This document shows positions 14,763 through 19,150 of a stretch of 64,000 nucleotides of DNA, piece after piece. Position 1 is the first letter of the stretch. Each line of letters starts with the position of its first letter. The notes beneath the pieces were generated by a model, which was not told where the DNA came from, ran no database searches, and worked only from the letters and a program-made list of their open reading frames with translations. The position numbers were made by a program, and so were the translations under genes. Origin of the DNA: Microbacteriaceae bacterium VKM Ac-2855 (lineage in GTDB: Bacteria; Actinomycetota; Actinomycetes; Actinomycetales; Microbacteriaceae); the NCBI GenBank assembly GCA_013204985.1, contig JABMLG010000005.1:198159-262158 (forward strand). The letters run 5' to 3'.

Positions 14763-16040
14763 ATGGCCATCATCGATCGTCCGAACAAGAAGAAGGGCGG
14801 CGCGGCGCCCTCGGCCCCCAAGAGCGCCCGCGTCGAGCACTCCTTCGATTCGAGCATCGAGGAGTGGCTCGCCGAGATCTCGGCGCAGGCGGCGGCCGCC
14901 GAGCTGGCGCGTCTGGAGCACGAAGGGACCGCGTTCCGCGTCGAGCCGGTCGTCGAGGCCGATGAGGCGGAATGCGCCCTCGACCCGGAGGCGCCGCTGC
15001 TTCTGAACCCGGCGGCGCACGTTGTGCTCGCAGAGACCACGGGAGCCGCTCCCGTGATCGGCGAGGTATGCGCGCTCGACGAGATCGTGCTCGAGAACCC
15101 GGCGGCCGCCGCCTTCGTGCCCATCGAAGCGCCGCCGCGTGACTCTCGCCCGGTCGCCACGCCGGCTGCTCCGCGCGAGCCGCGTCCGGTCGAGCCGCCG
15201 CTCTCCCGCCGCCGGGTGTTGGGCAACTGGGCGATCGGTGTCGGCGCCATCGCCGTGGCCGCCGTGCTCGTTGTGATCGGTCTACCGCGCTCCTCAGACC
15301 CGATCGCGCCGCTGCCCGTCTCGGCCGACCCCGCCATCGCGAGCGCCGAGACCTGGATCGCCGGGAACGTCGCCGGCGACTCGCGTGTCCTCGTCGACGA
15401 CGACCTCTCGGCCGAGCTCGTCGCCGCGGGGCTGCCCTCCGATGCGATCCTGCCGTTGTCGCTGCTCGCGGCGGATGCCGACCCCGAGGCGTGGCGTTCC
15501 GCCGACTTCGTGCTCGCCTCTCCGGATGTGCGGAACGACACGGCGGCGACGGTCACCGCCGCGCTGGCCAACTCCACGGTGGTCGCCGGCTTCGGCGACG
15601 TCGAGGTGCGCCGGATCCGCTCGACCGGTCTCGACCCGGCAGCGGATGCGGCGGCCGTGACCGCGCGCGCCGCTCTCGGCGCGCAGCTCGCCAGTAATCC
15701 CGAGATCGCGCTCGCCGCGCCTGCCGCGGCAGCGTTGCAGGCCGGGCAGGTCGACGGGCGAATCATCGTCGTTCTCGGCGAGGCGCTCGCCGACCGTGCA
15801 CTCGGCGTCGCCGACATGCCCGTCGGTGCGGGCGAGAGCGACGGCCCGCGGCACCGCCTTCTCCTGAACACGTTCGACGGCGCGCCGCTCGCCACCGATG
15901 CCACCGCCGTGGCGGAGGCCACGGCCTGGCTGGAGGGTCTCAGCGGCGACTACGCGCCGCTGTCGGTCACCTCCGGCCCCGACGGGGTGCTCGCCACCTT
16001 CTCGGTGGGCGACCCGAGTCGTGCGCTCCCTGCGAACTGA
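14763..16040 (+). CDS. Single-pass membrane protein with a glycosyltransferase-tail-like exported domain (paralog A)
   Basis: 425 aa. A ~155-residue acidic and Pro-rich cytoplasmic part precedes one transmembrane helix (~160-180, after LSRRRVLGN). The exported part begins AETWIAGNVAGDSRVLVDDD and runs through STVVAGFGDVEVRRI. This pattern resembles the C-terminal extracytoplasmic module I know from actinobacterial GT39-type membrane glycosyltransferases, but no catalytic GT domain is present. The last ~130 aa (QLASNPEI, GQVDGRIIVVLGEALADR, VADMPVG, RHRLLLNTFDG) are paralogous to the protein at 17634-18482. It precedes a DUF4397 gene and a sortase gene in the same orientation. No function is assigned. 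Confidence 0.75.
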   Translation: MAIIDRPNKKKGGAAPSAPKSARVEHSFDSSIEEWLAEISAQAAAAELARLEHEGTAFRVEPVVEADEAECALDPEAPLLLNPAAHVVLAETTGAAPVIGEVCALDEIVLENPAAAAFVPIEAPPRDSRPVATPAAPREPRPVEPPLSRRRVLGNWAIGVGAIAVAAVLVVIGLPRSSDPIAPLPVSADPAIASAETWIAGNVAGDSRVLVDDDLSAELVAAGLPSDAILPLSLLAADADPEAWRSADFVLASPDVRNDTAATVTAALANSTVVAGFGDVEVRRIRSTGLDPAADAAAVTARAALGAQLASNPEIALAAPAAAALQAGQVDGRIIVVLGEALADRALGVADMPVGAGESDGPRHRLLLNTFDGAPLATDATAVAEATAWLEGLSGDYAPLSVTSGPDGVLATFSVGDPSRALPAN

Positions 16041-16129
16041 CGCCGACCATCCGACTCGCTCGAACACTCGCGAACCCGACCTGCCCACCCCGACCTGAAG
16101 ATCGCACTCGAAGAAGAATGAGGACCGCC

Positions 16130-16999
16130 ATGAACCTCCGAACCCTGGCCCGCGTCGGCATCGTCGCCGCCGCGACCGCCGTATTCGGCCTCGCCGCCGC
16201 CACCCCGGCTGCGGCCGCTCCCGCCGTCGCGAACGAGGGATGGGTGCGTGTTGCGCACCTGTCGCCCGACACCAAGCAGGTCGACGTGCGCCTTACCGCG
16301 CTCGCCGGCGGCGGCACCGTGTTCGAGCTCGACGGCGTCGGCTACGGCGCCGTGTCGGACTACTGGACGCTCACCCCGGGAACCTACGTGGTCTCGATGG
16401 TGCCCGCGGGCGCGCCCGCGACGACGGCTCCGGTGATCCAGCAGTCGGTCGATGTCGTCGCCGGTACCCCGTTGACCGTCGCCGCGCTCGGCAAGAACGC
16501 CGATCTCTCGACCACCGTCTTCACCGACGACCTCACCGCGCCGGCCGACGGCCAGGCGCGCATCCGCGTGATCCAGGCTTCCACCACCGCCCGTACCGTC
16601 GATGTCAGCACAACAACGGGCATGGCGATCGCCTCCGATGCGACTGCCGGATCCGCGACGGCGTATACGAGCGTGCCGGCCGGACCGTGGACCCTCGACC
16701 TCGCGGCGGCCACGGCGACCTCGTCCTCCGCCGTTGACCTCGCCTCCGGCTCCGTGGCCTCGCTGTTCGTGCTCGATGACGCCAGCGGCGGGCTCACCGT
16801 CAAGTCGGTCGTCGACTCGGCCGGTATCGGCGCGGTCCCCATCGGCGGCATCCAGACCGGCGGTGGCGCGACCGCCGTGCACGTGAACTCGGCGGCGGAT
16901 GCGTTCGCGGGGGTCGCCGGGATCGGGGTCGCCGGGATCGCCCTCATCGGATCTGTCGCGGCGCTGATCGTGGTTCGCCGCCGCACTCAGCGGGCATGA
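16130..16999 (+). CDS. DUF4397 cell-surface protein, likely sortase substrate
   Basis: 289 aa from ATG 16130, which has gagga 6 nt upstream; ATG 16118 is an alternative. Signal peptide ending TPAAAAP, two Ig-like DUF4397 repeats (WVRVAHLSPDTKQVDVRL, then ARIRVIQASTTARTVDV), then GGIQTGG, a hydrophobic stretch and a basic RRRTQR tail. That tail is the layout of a cell-wall sorting signal with IQTG in place of LPxTG. Its stop overlaps the sortase start (ATGA), so the pair is translationally coupled. Attachment to the envelope by the neighbouring sortase is inferred. Confidence 0.82.
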   Translation: MNLRTLARVGIVAAATAVFGLAAATPAAAAPAVANEGWVRVAHLSPDTKQVDVRLTALAGGGTVFELDGVGYGAVSDYWTLTPGTYVVSMVPAGAPATTAPVIQQSVDVVAGTPLTVAALGKNADLSTTVFTDDLTAPADGQARIRVIQASTTARTVDVSTTTGMAIASDATAGSATAYTSVPAGPWTLDLAAATATSSSAVDLASGSVASLFVLDDASGGLTVKSVVDSAGIGAVPIGGIQTGGGATAVHVNSAADAFAGVAGIGVAGIALIGSVAALIVVRRRTQRA

Positions 17000-17634
17000 C
17001 CGTGCGCATCCGGGCGGTGACGGTTCTGGCGGCGCTGGCGCTGGCGCTGGCCGGATGCTCCGCCGCGCCCGTGGATGTTCCGGCCGCCGCGCCTACCCCC
17101 ACGGCGTCGGCAACTCCCGCTGCGGCGGCCGCCGTCGCCGCCGGTGTGATGCAGGATCCGCTCGTCGAGGCTGTAGCTCCGGTCCGCTCGGCGCTCGTGC
17201 CGACGCGGGTGATCATCCCCTCGATCGGGGTCGACGCGAACCTCGAGATGCTCTCGCGCGATTCGAAGGGCTGGATCGAAGCTCCGGCGATCGTGGACGA
17301 GGCCGGCTGGTACCAGGACGGCACCGTGCCCGGTGACGTCGGGCCCGCCGTGATCGCCGGTCATGTCGACTCGCGGATCGGACCCGGGGTGTTTCTCGAC
17401 CTCGCCTCGCTCGCGCCGGGCGCCATCGCTACGGTGCAGATGTCCGACGGCAGCAGCGTCGACTTCGCGGTCACCGCGACGATCTCGGTGCCGAAGGAGC
17501 AGTTCCCGACCGATCAGGTCTACGGCCCCACCCCCACCGCGCAGCTGAGGTTGATCACCTGCGGCGGCGTCTTCGACGACTCGTACGGTCATTACGTCGA
17601 CAACGTCGTCGTCTACGCCTCGAAGGTCGGCTGA
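16996..17634 (+). CDS. Sortase (class F-like), predicted lipoprotein
   Basis: 212 aa. Signal with lipobox LAGC (Cys21) instead of the usual transmembrane anchor, a Pro/Ala/Thr linker, then the sortase beta-barrel: PTRVIIPSIGVDANLE, catalytic His123 in AGHVDS and Cys189 in LITCGG, and the class F-like GGVFD...NVVVYA ending. The Arg that normally follows the Cys is not evident (GHYVDNVVV). Sortases cleave a sorting motif and transfer the protein to an envelope nucleophile. The gene overlaps its likely substrate gene upstream and the paralog B gene downstream. Confidence 0.88.
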   Translation: MTVRIRAVTVLAALALALAGCSAAPVDVPAAAPTPTASATPAAAAAVAAGVMQDPLVEAVAPVRSALVPTRVIIPSIGVDANLEMLSRDSKGWIEAPAIVDEAGWYQDGTVPGDVGPAVIAGHVDSRIGPGVFLDLASLAPGAIATVQMSDGSSVDFAVTATISVPKEQFPTDQVYGPTPTAQLRLITCGGVFDDSYGHYVDNVVVYASKVG

Positions 17635-18482
17635 TGAGCACCCTGCATCCGCTCGCCCTCTTCGGTCTCGATGAGGATGCCCTGCTCGCCCGTCGCTCGT
17701 CGGCACCCGGCCCGTTCGGCGATGCGCCGGGGCCGATCGAACCCGCGCTGTTGCTCACCGCCGTCGCGATCGCGCCGACGCCGAGCAGCGAACGCGCAAC
17801 CGCACCCGTCGCGGTCGTGAGCCGCCCTCCCGTGCGGCCGTTGCCGGATCGTGCGCTGGCGCCGGTGCTCCGCGTCGCTCCCCGCGGTGGAGCCCGGCTC
17901 GATCACGTGGTCGCCGCAGCGTTGATCGCTGTGCTCCTCGCCGTGGTCGTCGCCTCGGGGCTCGCGGTGCGTCCCGAGGCCACCGTCGCGGCTCCTGTCG
18001 GGATGCGGCTCGCCACGATCGAGGACGCGCCGTCGACCGTCGCCCAGCTCGCGGCGAGCGCGTCTCGTGCCCAGGCCGCAGAGCAGTTGCTGCGCAACCC
18101 GGCCCTGATCGCCTCGGACGACGCGACGCCGCTGCTCGCCTCCGGGCGCGTCGATGCGCGTCTCATCCTGATCCTCGGCCAGTCGCTCGCCACGGCTCCG
18201 ACGCGCGTCGCGGACTTCCCGGCCGGCGATGACGACGCGACAGGCGTGCGGCATCGGATGCTCGTGGGCACCTACCAGGGCTTCCCGCTCACCCGGAACC
18301 AGTCGAGCACGCCCACCCCCGAGGCCGTCGCCGCGGCTACGGCGTGGATGGCGCAGTTGACCGGCGTCTTCGAGCCGACGGCGATCGAACTGACCGATGC
18401 GGGACTCCTGATCACCCTCGACGACGACGAACCGGAGGGCCTTCTGCCCGCCTTCTCGGCCGCCGCCCGCGCCCGCTCCTGA
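17634..18482 (+). CDS. Single-pass membrane protein (paralog B of 14763-16040)
   Basis: 282 aa; starts inside the sortase stop (TGATG). Cytoplasmic ~95 residues, a transmembrane helix (~100-118, AALIAVLLAVVVASGLAV), then an exported domain. SASRAQAAEQLLRNPALIA, GRVDARLILILGQSLA, RVADFPAG, VRHRMLVGTYQGFPL and ATAWMAQLTGVFEP align with the C-terminal half of the product at 14763-16040. It lacks the first exported subdomain of that paralog. Function unknown; membership of the sortase cluster is the main clue. Confidence 0.75.
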   Translation: MSTLHPLALFGLDEDALLARRSSAPGPFGDAPGPIEPALLLTAVAIAPTPSSERATAPVAVVSRPPVRPLPDRALAPVLRVAPRGGARLDHVVAAALIAVLLAVVVASGLAVRPEATVAAPVGMRLATIEDAPSTVAQLAASASRAQAAEQLLRNPALIASDDATPLLASGRVDARLILILGQSLATAPTRVADFPAGDDDATGVRHRMLVGTYQGFPLTRNQSSTPTPEAVAAATAWMAQLTGVFEPTAIELTDAGLLITLDDDEPEGLLPAFSAAARARS

Positions 18483-18530: not shown

Positions 18531-19150
18531 GTTGTCACGAACCGCCTCGTTCGGCCCCCGCGGTGGCGGCTTTGCGACCACCCCGGGCTTGCCGCGGCGG
18601 CGGTCCCGGGTCGGGGGTGGCCCGGGTTGTCGCGAAGCGTCCGTGCGGCGGCGGATGCAGGCCGGTTTGCGCCCACCCGGGCTTGTGGCGGTCGCGGCGC
18701 GGAGGCGGCCCGGCGTTGTCGCGAAGCGTCCGTCCGCGGTCCGCAAACGGTCGGTTCACGCCCACCCGGGCTTGTCGCGGTGGCGGGGCGGAGGTGGCCC
18801 GGGGTTGTCGCGAAGCGTCCGTCCGTGTGCGGGTGCCGGCCGGCTCGCGCCCACCCGGGCTCGACCTCGTGGCGGTCCCGGGTCGGGGGTGGCCGGGGTT
18901 GTCGCGAAGCGCCCGTCCGTGTGCGGGTGCCGGCCGGTTCGCGCCCACCCGGGCTTGTCGCGGCGGCGGTATGGGTCGGGGGTGGCCCGGGGTTGTCGCG
19001 AAGCGTCCGTCCGCGGGCGGATGCCGGCCGGTTCGTGCCCACCCGGGCTTGTGGCGGTCGCGGCGGCGGTGCCGGGGCGGTGGTGGCCCGGGTTGCCGCG
19101 AACCGCCCGCCCCGGGGCGGCAAGCGGCCGGTTTGCGCCCACCCGGGCAG
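18531..19150. repeat. Seven-unit imperfect tandem array, 89-100 bp per unit
   Basis: The 703-bp gap between the paralog B gene and the NTF2-like gene holds this array. The anchor gttgtcgcgaagcg starts at 18531 (variant), 18626, 18715, 18804, 18898, 18992 and 19092 (variant). Each unit also carries CCCACCCGGGCTTG and a GGTGGCCCGGG segment, so the core CCCGGG-TTGTCGCG occurs twice per unit in direct orientation. Arms GGGTG/CACCC could fold a hairpin in each. All frames are open because of high GC, but the translations look like noise. I see no gene here. Confidence 0.88.

What the first reader, a model, noticed from the sequence alone, without database searches (positions are those of the whole stretch)
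14763..18482. Four-gene sortase cluster with two paralogous glycosyltransferase-tail-like membrane proteins
A DUF4397 surface protein and a lipoprotein sortase are translationally coupled (ATGA), the sortase is coupled to paralog B (TGATG), and paralog A lies 77-90 bp upstream. Paralogs A and B share an exported C-terminal domain, and A also carries a second subdomain (AETWIAGN..DSRVLVDDD to EVRRI). To my knowledge both resemble the extracytoplasmic tails of actinobacterial GT39-type enzymes, yet no catalytic GT domain exists in either. A detached glycan- or acceptor-binding module encoded with a sortase and its substrate suggests a surface-anchoring system that uses an unusual, perhaps glycan-linked, acceptor.
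Basis: partly seen in the sequence, partly recalled or inferred. Interest (0 to 1): 0.82.

Follow-up and report, generated by a model that had tools for sequence, protein, structure and literature searches.

The report
Sortase locus with dead enzyme tails
Next to an enzyme that attaches proteins to the bacterial surface sit two membrane proteins that look like leftover tails of a sugar-transferring enzyme, and several groups of related bacteria kept such a tail without the enzyme, which suggests that the tail may help the attachment reaction.

Summary
The four genes are real and coupled as described. The window is the stripped form of a conserved actinobacterial locus that I did not find in print. 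The full form is: GT2 synthase, GT39-type (GT-C) transferase with a two-part tail, DUF4397 surface protein, GH8 endoglucanase, class F sortase, often a DPM1-like GT2. Of 105 distinct loci with DUF4397 and tail domain 2, 67 have the intact GT39 motif, synthase and GH8 together; 34 have none; 4 are contig-cut or explained. The state needs 9 changes on a tree. In 80 loci found through DUF4397 alone, domain 2 is present in 79 and the sortase in 78.

In the model, domain 1 resembles the soluble domain of GT-C enzymes. Domain 2 resembles the Hedgehog/DD-peptidase fold, also by profile comparison (96%; shuffled controls at most 6%), but lacks the zinc ligands (0 of 124 at each His position). Most DUF4397 proteins end in PxGGVxTGxG, not LPXTG.

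Best reading: A and B are membrane-tethered, catalytically dead cofactors that bring the sortase its acceptor or its Gly-rich signal. Descent is shown; the function is inferred. The GT-tail resemblance is right; a glycan-linked acceptor is untested.

The parts
14763..16040 (+). Gene A (425 aa): cytoplasmic N-part, one TM helix, SUB1 + SUB2 outside
   Evidence: (hydropathy; a second, weaker peak at aa 219-237 lies inside SUB1)
15228..15284 (+). TM helix of A (aa 156-174)
   Evidence: Kyte-Doolittle peak 2.58
15312..15635 (+). SUB1 of A: GT-C enzyme soluble tail domain (STT3/DPY19/ArnT-like)
15648..16031 (+). SUB2 of A: Hedgehog/DD-peptidase-like (LAS/M15) domain without zinc ligands
16118..16999 (+). 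DUF4397 surface protein (293 aa) with signal peptide (by eye) and C-terminal sorting-type signal
   Evidence: PF14344 115.7 bits
16838..16867 (+). Motif PIGGIQTGGG (aa 241-250), followed by a hydrophobic helix and an RRR tail: candidate sorting signal, no LPXTG
   Evidence: NCBIfam GVDTG_CTERM 15.4 bits, below cut-off 29
16996..17634 (+). Class F sortase (212 aa), lipobox by eye, overlaps DUF4397 by ATGA
   Evidence: NF033748 171.8 bits, cut-off 166
17634..18482 (+). Gene B (282 aa): cytoplasmic N-part, one TM helix, SUB2 only; overlaps the sortase gene by TGATG
17907..17963 (+). TM helix of B (aa 92-110)
   Evidence: Kyte-Doolittle peak 2.87
18051..18449 (+). SUB2 of B, closer to the single SUB2 of Rathayibacter loci than to SUB2 of A
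   Evidence: HMM E 3e-41; tree support 97/91

Best explanation
The four genes are a reduced class F sortase display operon. It descends from a larger locus that probably makes and modifies an extracellular polysaccharide (GT2 synthase, GT39-type transferase, GH8 trimming enzyme, DPM1-like donor synthase) and anchors a DUF4397 surface protein. SHOWN: common descent of A with the GT39 tails; loss of the catalytic motif goes with absence of synthase and GH8. SUPPORTED: A and B are under purifying selection (one pair of genomes); SUB2 has a Hedgehog/DD-peptidase-like fold and has lost the zinc ligands. INFERRED: DUF4397 is exported and held by its C-terminal helix; sortase F cuts within G-G-I-Q-T/G-G-G and passes the protein to an amine acceptor; A and B, tethered in the membrane, are non-catalytic cofactors whose SUB2 groove holds a peptide for the sortase, by first choice the wall acceptor (stem peptide or lipid II), by second choice the Gly-rich signal. 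In full-form loci the intact GT39 would couple this step to the polysaccharide of the operon. My shares: descent 0.9, SUB2 fold 0.8, sortase cofactor of either kind 0.5 (the confidence given here), of which acceptor about 0.28 and signal about 0.22.
For: DUF4397 follows the tail in 17 of 17 family relatives and all 17 wide loci have the sortase. With DUF4397 as query, SUB2 in 79 and sortase in 78 of 80 loci, the two without sortase being contig ends. 105 distinct loci: motif + synthase + GH8 67, none 34, 4 others explained. Nine state changes on the tree, 8 independent pairs on well-supported branches. GH8 and sortase are one 546-aa frame in L045. SUB2 fold. Zinc ligands absent. dN/dS. SUB2 gene after the sortase also in the distant L105.
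Confidence: 0.5

Rival explanations
1. Version within the cofactor reading, against my first choice: SUB2 is a substrate chaperone. Its dead groove binds the Gly-rich PxGGVxTGxG signal of DUF4397, not the wall acceptor, and hands it to the sortase. (This share is contained in the 0.5 above.)
For: SUB2 and DUF4397 genes are neighbours in 105 distinct loci, by selection, and in 79 of 80 loci selected by DUF4397; a Gly-rich peptide could fit a former DD-peptidase groove (inference).
Confidence: 0.22
2. SUB1/SUB2 bind glycan: A and B hold an exopolysaccharide or other glycan acceptor to which the sortase joins DUF4397.
For: Full-form loci carry a polysaccharide-synthase-like GT2, a GT39 and a GH8, and one fuses GH8 to the sortase; SUB1 is a GT-C tail.
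Against: The window genome has no GH8, no other GT39 core of this kind and only a 22-bit match to the synthase, yet A and B are kept; SUB2 looks like a peptidase fold, and B has no SUB1.
Confidence: 0.15
3. A and B are cell-envelope proteins whose neighbourhood with the sortase is historical; SUB2 works in wall metabolism independently of sorting.
For: Solitary SUB2 proteins with long cytoplasmic parts, followed by a folD-like gene, in 3 of 3 f20 loci examined; no DUF4397 in the 5 f20 genomes.
Against: Neighbourhood with DUF4397 and sortase is kept across 9 changes between intact and lost GT39.
Confidence: 0.15
4. A and B are decaying remnants without function.
For: Catalytic parts are gone; the cytoplasmic part of B diverges fast (aa 1-90 dN/dS 0.52).
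Against: SUB2 dN/dS 0.29-0.33 and both frames open in the sister L121; GT-less tails in several genera.
Confidence: 0.04

Closest known systems
GT39/GT-C lipid-linked sugar transferases (ArnT, PMT, STT3/AglB OSTs)
   Different: A and B have no catalytic domain; SUB2 lies beyond model residue 519, the end of the range covered by a fifth or more of the rows
Hedgehog/DD-peptidase (LAS, M15) fold
   Different: Zinc ligands absent in SUB2 (0 of 124 at each His position; D in 11 of 124 at the Asp position), so no active metallopeptidase of this type
Class F sortases (P. acnes SrtF, Actinoplanes SrtF1-4)
   Same: NCBIfam NF033748 met
   Different: Here in an operon with a candidate dedicated non-LPXTG substrate and dead-enzyme partners. 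PMC13251363 (passages read) calls the physiological roles of class F unknown
NCBIfam GVDTG sorting domain (NF058571)
   Same: DUF4397 C-termini of relatives match it; L147 is above cut-off (34.9 bits)
   Different: Window protein 15.4, cut-off 29; 1 of 16 proteins scanned reached the cut-off
Synthase-dependent exopolysaccharide operons with a GH8 (bcs: BcsA, BcsZ)
   Same: Full-form loci carry a PF13641 GT2 and a GH8 that scores 131-135 bits with the BcsZ model, below its cut-off of 299
   Different: I know of no GT39, DUF4397 or sortase there (recalled); the polymer here is unknown

Membership tests
Class F sortase | NCBIfam NF033748 score at or over 166 | tested here: met
   171.8 bits; His60 and Cys126 invariant in the 26 sortases aligned
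DUF4397 | Pfam PF14344 gathering score | tested here: met
   115.7 vs 30.6
GVDTG_CTERM sorting domain | NF058571 score at or over 29 | tested here: not met
   window protein 15.4 bits; of 15 relatives scanned only L147 reached it, 34.9
LPXTG sorting signal | LPXTG-like pentapeptide before a C-terminal helix and basic tail | tested here: not met
   C-terminus reads PIGGIQTGGG, then helix and RRR
GT39/PMT glycosyltransferase (gene A or B) | Catalytic GT-C domain with acidic motif in the first outer loop (motif place recalled) | tested here: not met
   No PMT hit in A or B; no GT39 region in either window row
GT39/PMT glycosyltransferase (full-form relatives) | Pfam PMT/PMT_2 score and GT-C fold | tested here: met
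   Of 4 full-form proteins scanned, L006 reached cut-off (PMT_2 42.4 vs 26.1) and 3 did not (PMT 19-20.5 vs 22.7); model of L133 is GT-C
LAS/M15 metallopeptidase (SUB2) | Zinc ligands HxxxxxxD and HxH | tested here: not met
   H 0/124, D 11/124, H 0/124, H 0/124; the first His falls in a gap in 107 of 124
Hedgehog/DD-peptidase fold (SUB2) | Same fold | tested here: inconclusive
   [not shown]
Sortase substrate (DUF4397 protein) | Cleavage and transfer by the sortase | not testable with these tools
   needs biochemistry

The most novel reading that the evidence does not exclude
Class F sortases of this kind have a dedicated partner: a membrane-tethered pseudo-DD-peptidase (SUB2) that presents the acceptor or the signal peptide. 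The system arose as the protein-anchoring arm of a synthase-made exopolysaccharide locus, so that in full-form strains DUF4397 proteins are joined to that polysaccharide or its glycosylated primer rather than to ordinary peptidoglycan.
Probability: 0.22. Interest if true: 0.87.

Novelty: new variant of a known kind. Interest (0 to 1): 0.68.

Why it matters
A 2026 paper states that the physiological roles of class F sortases remain unknown and reports no phenotypic change for a quadruple srtF deletion in Actinoplanes (PMC13251363, passages). This locus gives a class F sortase a candidate dedicated substrate, a candidate signal and a conserved partner protein, so the question can be tested. A dead DD-peptidase fold as part of a sorting machine would be a new use of a pseudo-enzyme. 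The joint loss of GT39 catalysis, polysaccharide synthase and endoglucanase in loci that still carry tail, DUF4397 and sortase is a natural experiment that separates two functions of the locus.

Tried and rejected
A link between full-form loci and loss of the C-terminal helix of DUF4397 looked strong by raw count, but independent pairs on the tree gave no association; dropped. The tRNA-Val call inside the DUF4397 gene has no Rfam support; taken as false. PDB sequence searches gave nothing useful: SUB2 profile best E 0.55, M15-like profile A6 best E 0.34, one full GT39 protein two unrelated weak hits, DUF4397 five unrelated weak hits. For the sortase, phmmer gave one cohesin-labelled chain at E 0.0023, and its profile matched other sortases weakly (best E 3.2e-06). 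PHROGs gave no hit for the four proteins. NCBIfam gave nothing above cut-off for two full GT39 proteins, a solitary SUB2 protein, an M15-like protein and L121's B. Foldseek on the A tail gave nothing at E 0.001; only the second look gave fold matches. L129 first looked like an exception (GT2 without GH8), but its GT2 hit is partial (48.6 bits) and its GT39 motif is gone. B as a recent copy of A was rejected: B groups with the Rathayibacter SUB2; holding the A and B rows together is only weakly rejected (p-AU 0.034).

Literature searches: 12 papers for class F sortase; DUF4397 + sortase: 0; DUF4397 + actinobacteria: 0; 3 papers for DUF4397, listing only; 0; Rathayibacter + sortase: 0. I opened two papers: PMC13251363 (passages) and PMC6027127 (outline and abstract). 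Only open-licence PubMed Central papers are held, so 'not found in print' means not found in these searches.

Full report
OBSERVATION. Family scans give DUF4397 and class F sortase above cut-off and nothing above cut-off for A and B. A has a ~150-aa cytoplasmic part, one TM helix and two exported subdomains, SUB1 and SUB2. B has a ~90-aa cytoplasmic part, one TM helix and SUB2 only. The DUF4397 protein ends in PIGGIQTGGG, a hydrophobic helix and RRR.

RELATIVES IN THE FAMILY. The exported part of A was searched in 150 genomes of the same family: 18 of 150 match, own genome included, and 132 do not. In all 17 relatives the A homologue is followed by a DUF4397 gene, and all 17 wide loci (L041-L057) have the class F sortase. 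Eleven of the 17 A homologues are polytopic proteins of ~660-735 aa with a DDEGTY motif. Ten proteins were scanned against Pfam: nine A homologues and L038, a B hit that proved to be an ordinary GT2. Of the four full-form ones among them, L006 reached cut-off for PMT_2 (42.4 bits) and three had only sub-cut-off PMT scores.

FULL-FORM LOCUS. Next to the intact GT39-type gene stand a PF13641 GT2 (140 bits), a GH8 (PF01270, 135 bits; BcsZ model NF008305 at 131-135, below its cut-off of 299), the sortase and often a DPM1-like GT2. In L045 GH8 and sortase are one open frame of 546 aa.

CLASS-WIDE. A SUB2 profile found 34 of 394 genomes of the class, 17 of 138 genera (only 10 candidates per genome were scored, so this is a lower bound). 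Of 42 match rows outside the own genome I fetched 30. Eighteen of the 30 have SUB2 and a DUF4397 hit by my local models; 17 of these 18 also have the sortase. The exception, L110, is doubtful: its DUF4397 hit is only 48 bits and Pfam's own model finds no DUF4397 in that genome. Eleven of the 30 have SUB2 without DUF4397 in the stretch (L111 is a 6-kb contig whose genome has DUF4397 on another contig), and L114 showed no hit. With the family set and the window this gives 36 loci. DDEGTY is present in 16 of 16 loci with synthase and GH8 (15 of 15 without L110) and in 0 of 20 without them. The 20 comprise 11 recognisable GT39 proteins that lost the motif, 2 polytopic proteins not recognised, and 7 single-TM tails, the window among them.

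TEST NOT SELECTED BY THE TAIL. A genome-contig scan with a DUF4397 alignment (itself made from tail-bearing loci) gave 342 relatives, of which the best 80 were returned. SUB2 is present in 79 of 80 and the sortase in 78 of 80; the two without sortase are contig ends (L126, L198), and L191 lacks SUB2. Adding the first set gives 115 loci with DUF4397 and SUB2, 105 distinct by DUF4397 + sortase sequence: 67 with motif, synthase and GH8 (L110 among them); 34 with none; and L126 (contig end), L149 and L150 (cut upstream) and L129 (partial 48.6-bit GT2 hit, motif gone). Near-identical loci were not merged. On a tree of 100 of the 105 (L149, L150 and the three without a sortase hit left out), 'intact' versus 'lost' needs 9 changes; 8 independent pairs lie on well-supported branches. 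Because all rows were required to have SUB2 and DUF4397, the tree shows repeated loss or gain of the catalytic set, not that SUB2 can never be lost. Quick search and long branches limit trust in single nodes. Whole-genome searches show no GH8 in 16 of 19 genomes with the reduced locus, the window's included; three have another GH8 elsewhere at ~80 bits; all 6 full-form genomes in the same search have it. The window genome has no other such GT39 core and only a 22-bit match to the synthase.

SUB2 BY SEQUENCE. Before the fold search, weak SUB2 hits in one genus of the class (L115, L116, L117, L119) turned out to be proteins with an export-type N-terminus (by eye), HxxxxxxD and HxH motifs, and sub-cut-off M15 scores (PF08291 at best 18.7 vs 23.2). 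Profile comparison of SUB2 with these four sequences gives 96.2-96.5%; 60 column-shuffled controls reach at most 5.9% and six other profiles of the locus at most 3.6%. In a joint alignment of 124 SUB2 copies (duplicates not removed, solitary SUB2 proteins included) the three His positions hold H in 0, 0 and 0, and the Asp position holds D in 11. So SUB2 is most likely a dead relative of this fold. That Hedgehog and DD-peptidases are related is stated in the abstract of PMC6027127 (outline and abstract) and in the start of the abstract of PMC4102407 (search listing).

SIGNAL. The DUF4397 C-termini carry P-x-G-x-[VIL]-x-[TA]-G-x-G in 103 of 115 loci; at least 9 of the other 12 show a close variant, and L110 shows none. 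NCBI's GVDTG sorting domain reached its cut-off in 1 of 16 proteins scanned (L147, 34.9 bits, cut-off 29); the window protein scores 15.4. I therefore call it a sorting-type signal, not a proven one.

A VERSUS B. L121 has both genes; all five Rathayibacter loci in the scan (L122-L125, L127) have one. B groups with the Rathayibacter SUB2 (97/91), not with A, so the two copies are probably older than that split. Pairwise dN/dS is 0.33 (A-SUB2) and 0.29 (B-SUB2) against 0.27 and 0.26 for DUF4397 and sortase.

MECHANISM. The constant companions of SUB2 in these loci are the DUF4397 protein and the class F sortase. SUB2 is outside, on a tether, has a former peptide-cleaving fold and no catalytic metal site. 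The simplest role is to hold a peptide for the sortase: either the wall acceptor (my first choice, about 0.28) or the Gly-rich signal (about 0.22); together 0.5. In the full form the same protein is also a sugar transferase, which would couple anchoring to the polysaccharide of the operon. Against it stand solitary SUB2 proteins in 5 f20 genomes without DUF4397; in the 3 loci examined a folD-like gene follows them, and in L109 a purH-like gene precedes (gene names recalled from the first residues).

NOVELTY. Parts are known kinds (class F sortase, DUF4397, GT39, GH8); the locus, the dead tail and its repeated occurrence were not found in print in the searches named under Tried and rejected. 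I rate it a new variant of a known kind.

Noticed in passing
window 18599-19069: About five GC-rich tandem copies of an 89-94 bp unit downstream of B.
   Followed up: no
window 15057 (cytoplasmic part of A): Motif IGEVCALD; similar motifs once in L121, L122 and L125 and twice in L124, none in the other 10 loci searched, L123 and L127 included. A possible short cytoplasmic binding motif.
   Followed up: partly
L045:5441-7078 (minus): GH8 endoglucanase and class F sortase fused in one 546-aa frame with a lipobox by eye.
   Followed up: partly
alignment A3, columns 137-140: His and Cys are invariant in these sortases, but the place where I recall the catalytic Arg of class A sortases varies (Y-x-D/N-N); an Arg four residues before Cys is nearly invariant.
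   Followed up: no
L109, L112, L113: Solitary SUB2 proteins with long cytoplasmic parts, followed by a folD-like gene, in genomes without DUF4397.
   Followed up: partly
[not shown]
   Followed up: no
L179: A record titled Planococcus (a Firmicute name) holds a full actinobacterial-type locus: probably a misnamed or mixed assembly.
   Followed up: no
DUF4397 C-termini of L044, L046, L048-L054, L091, L093, L108: The sorting-type motif is kept but no hydrophobic helix follows it.
   Followed up: partly
window 16120-16217 (minus): ARAGORN tRNA-Val call inside the DUF4397 gene; no Rfam match, probably false.
   Followed up: yes
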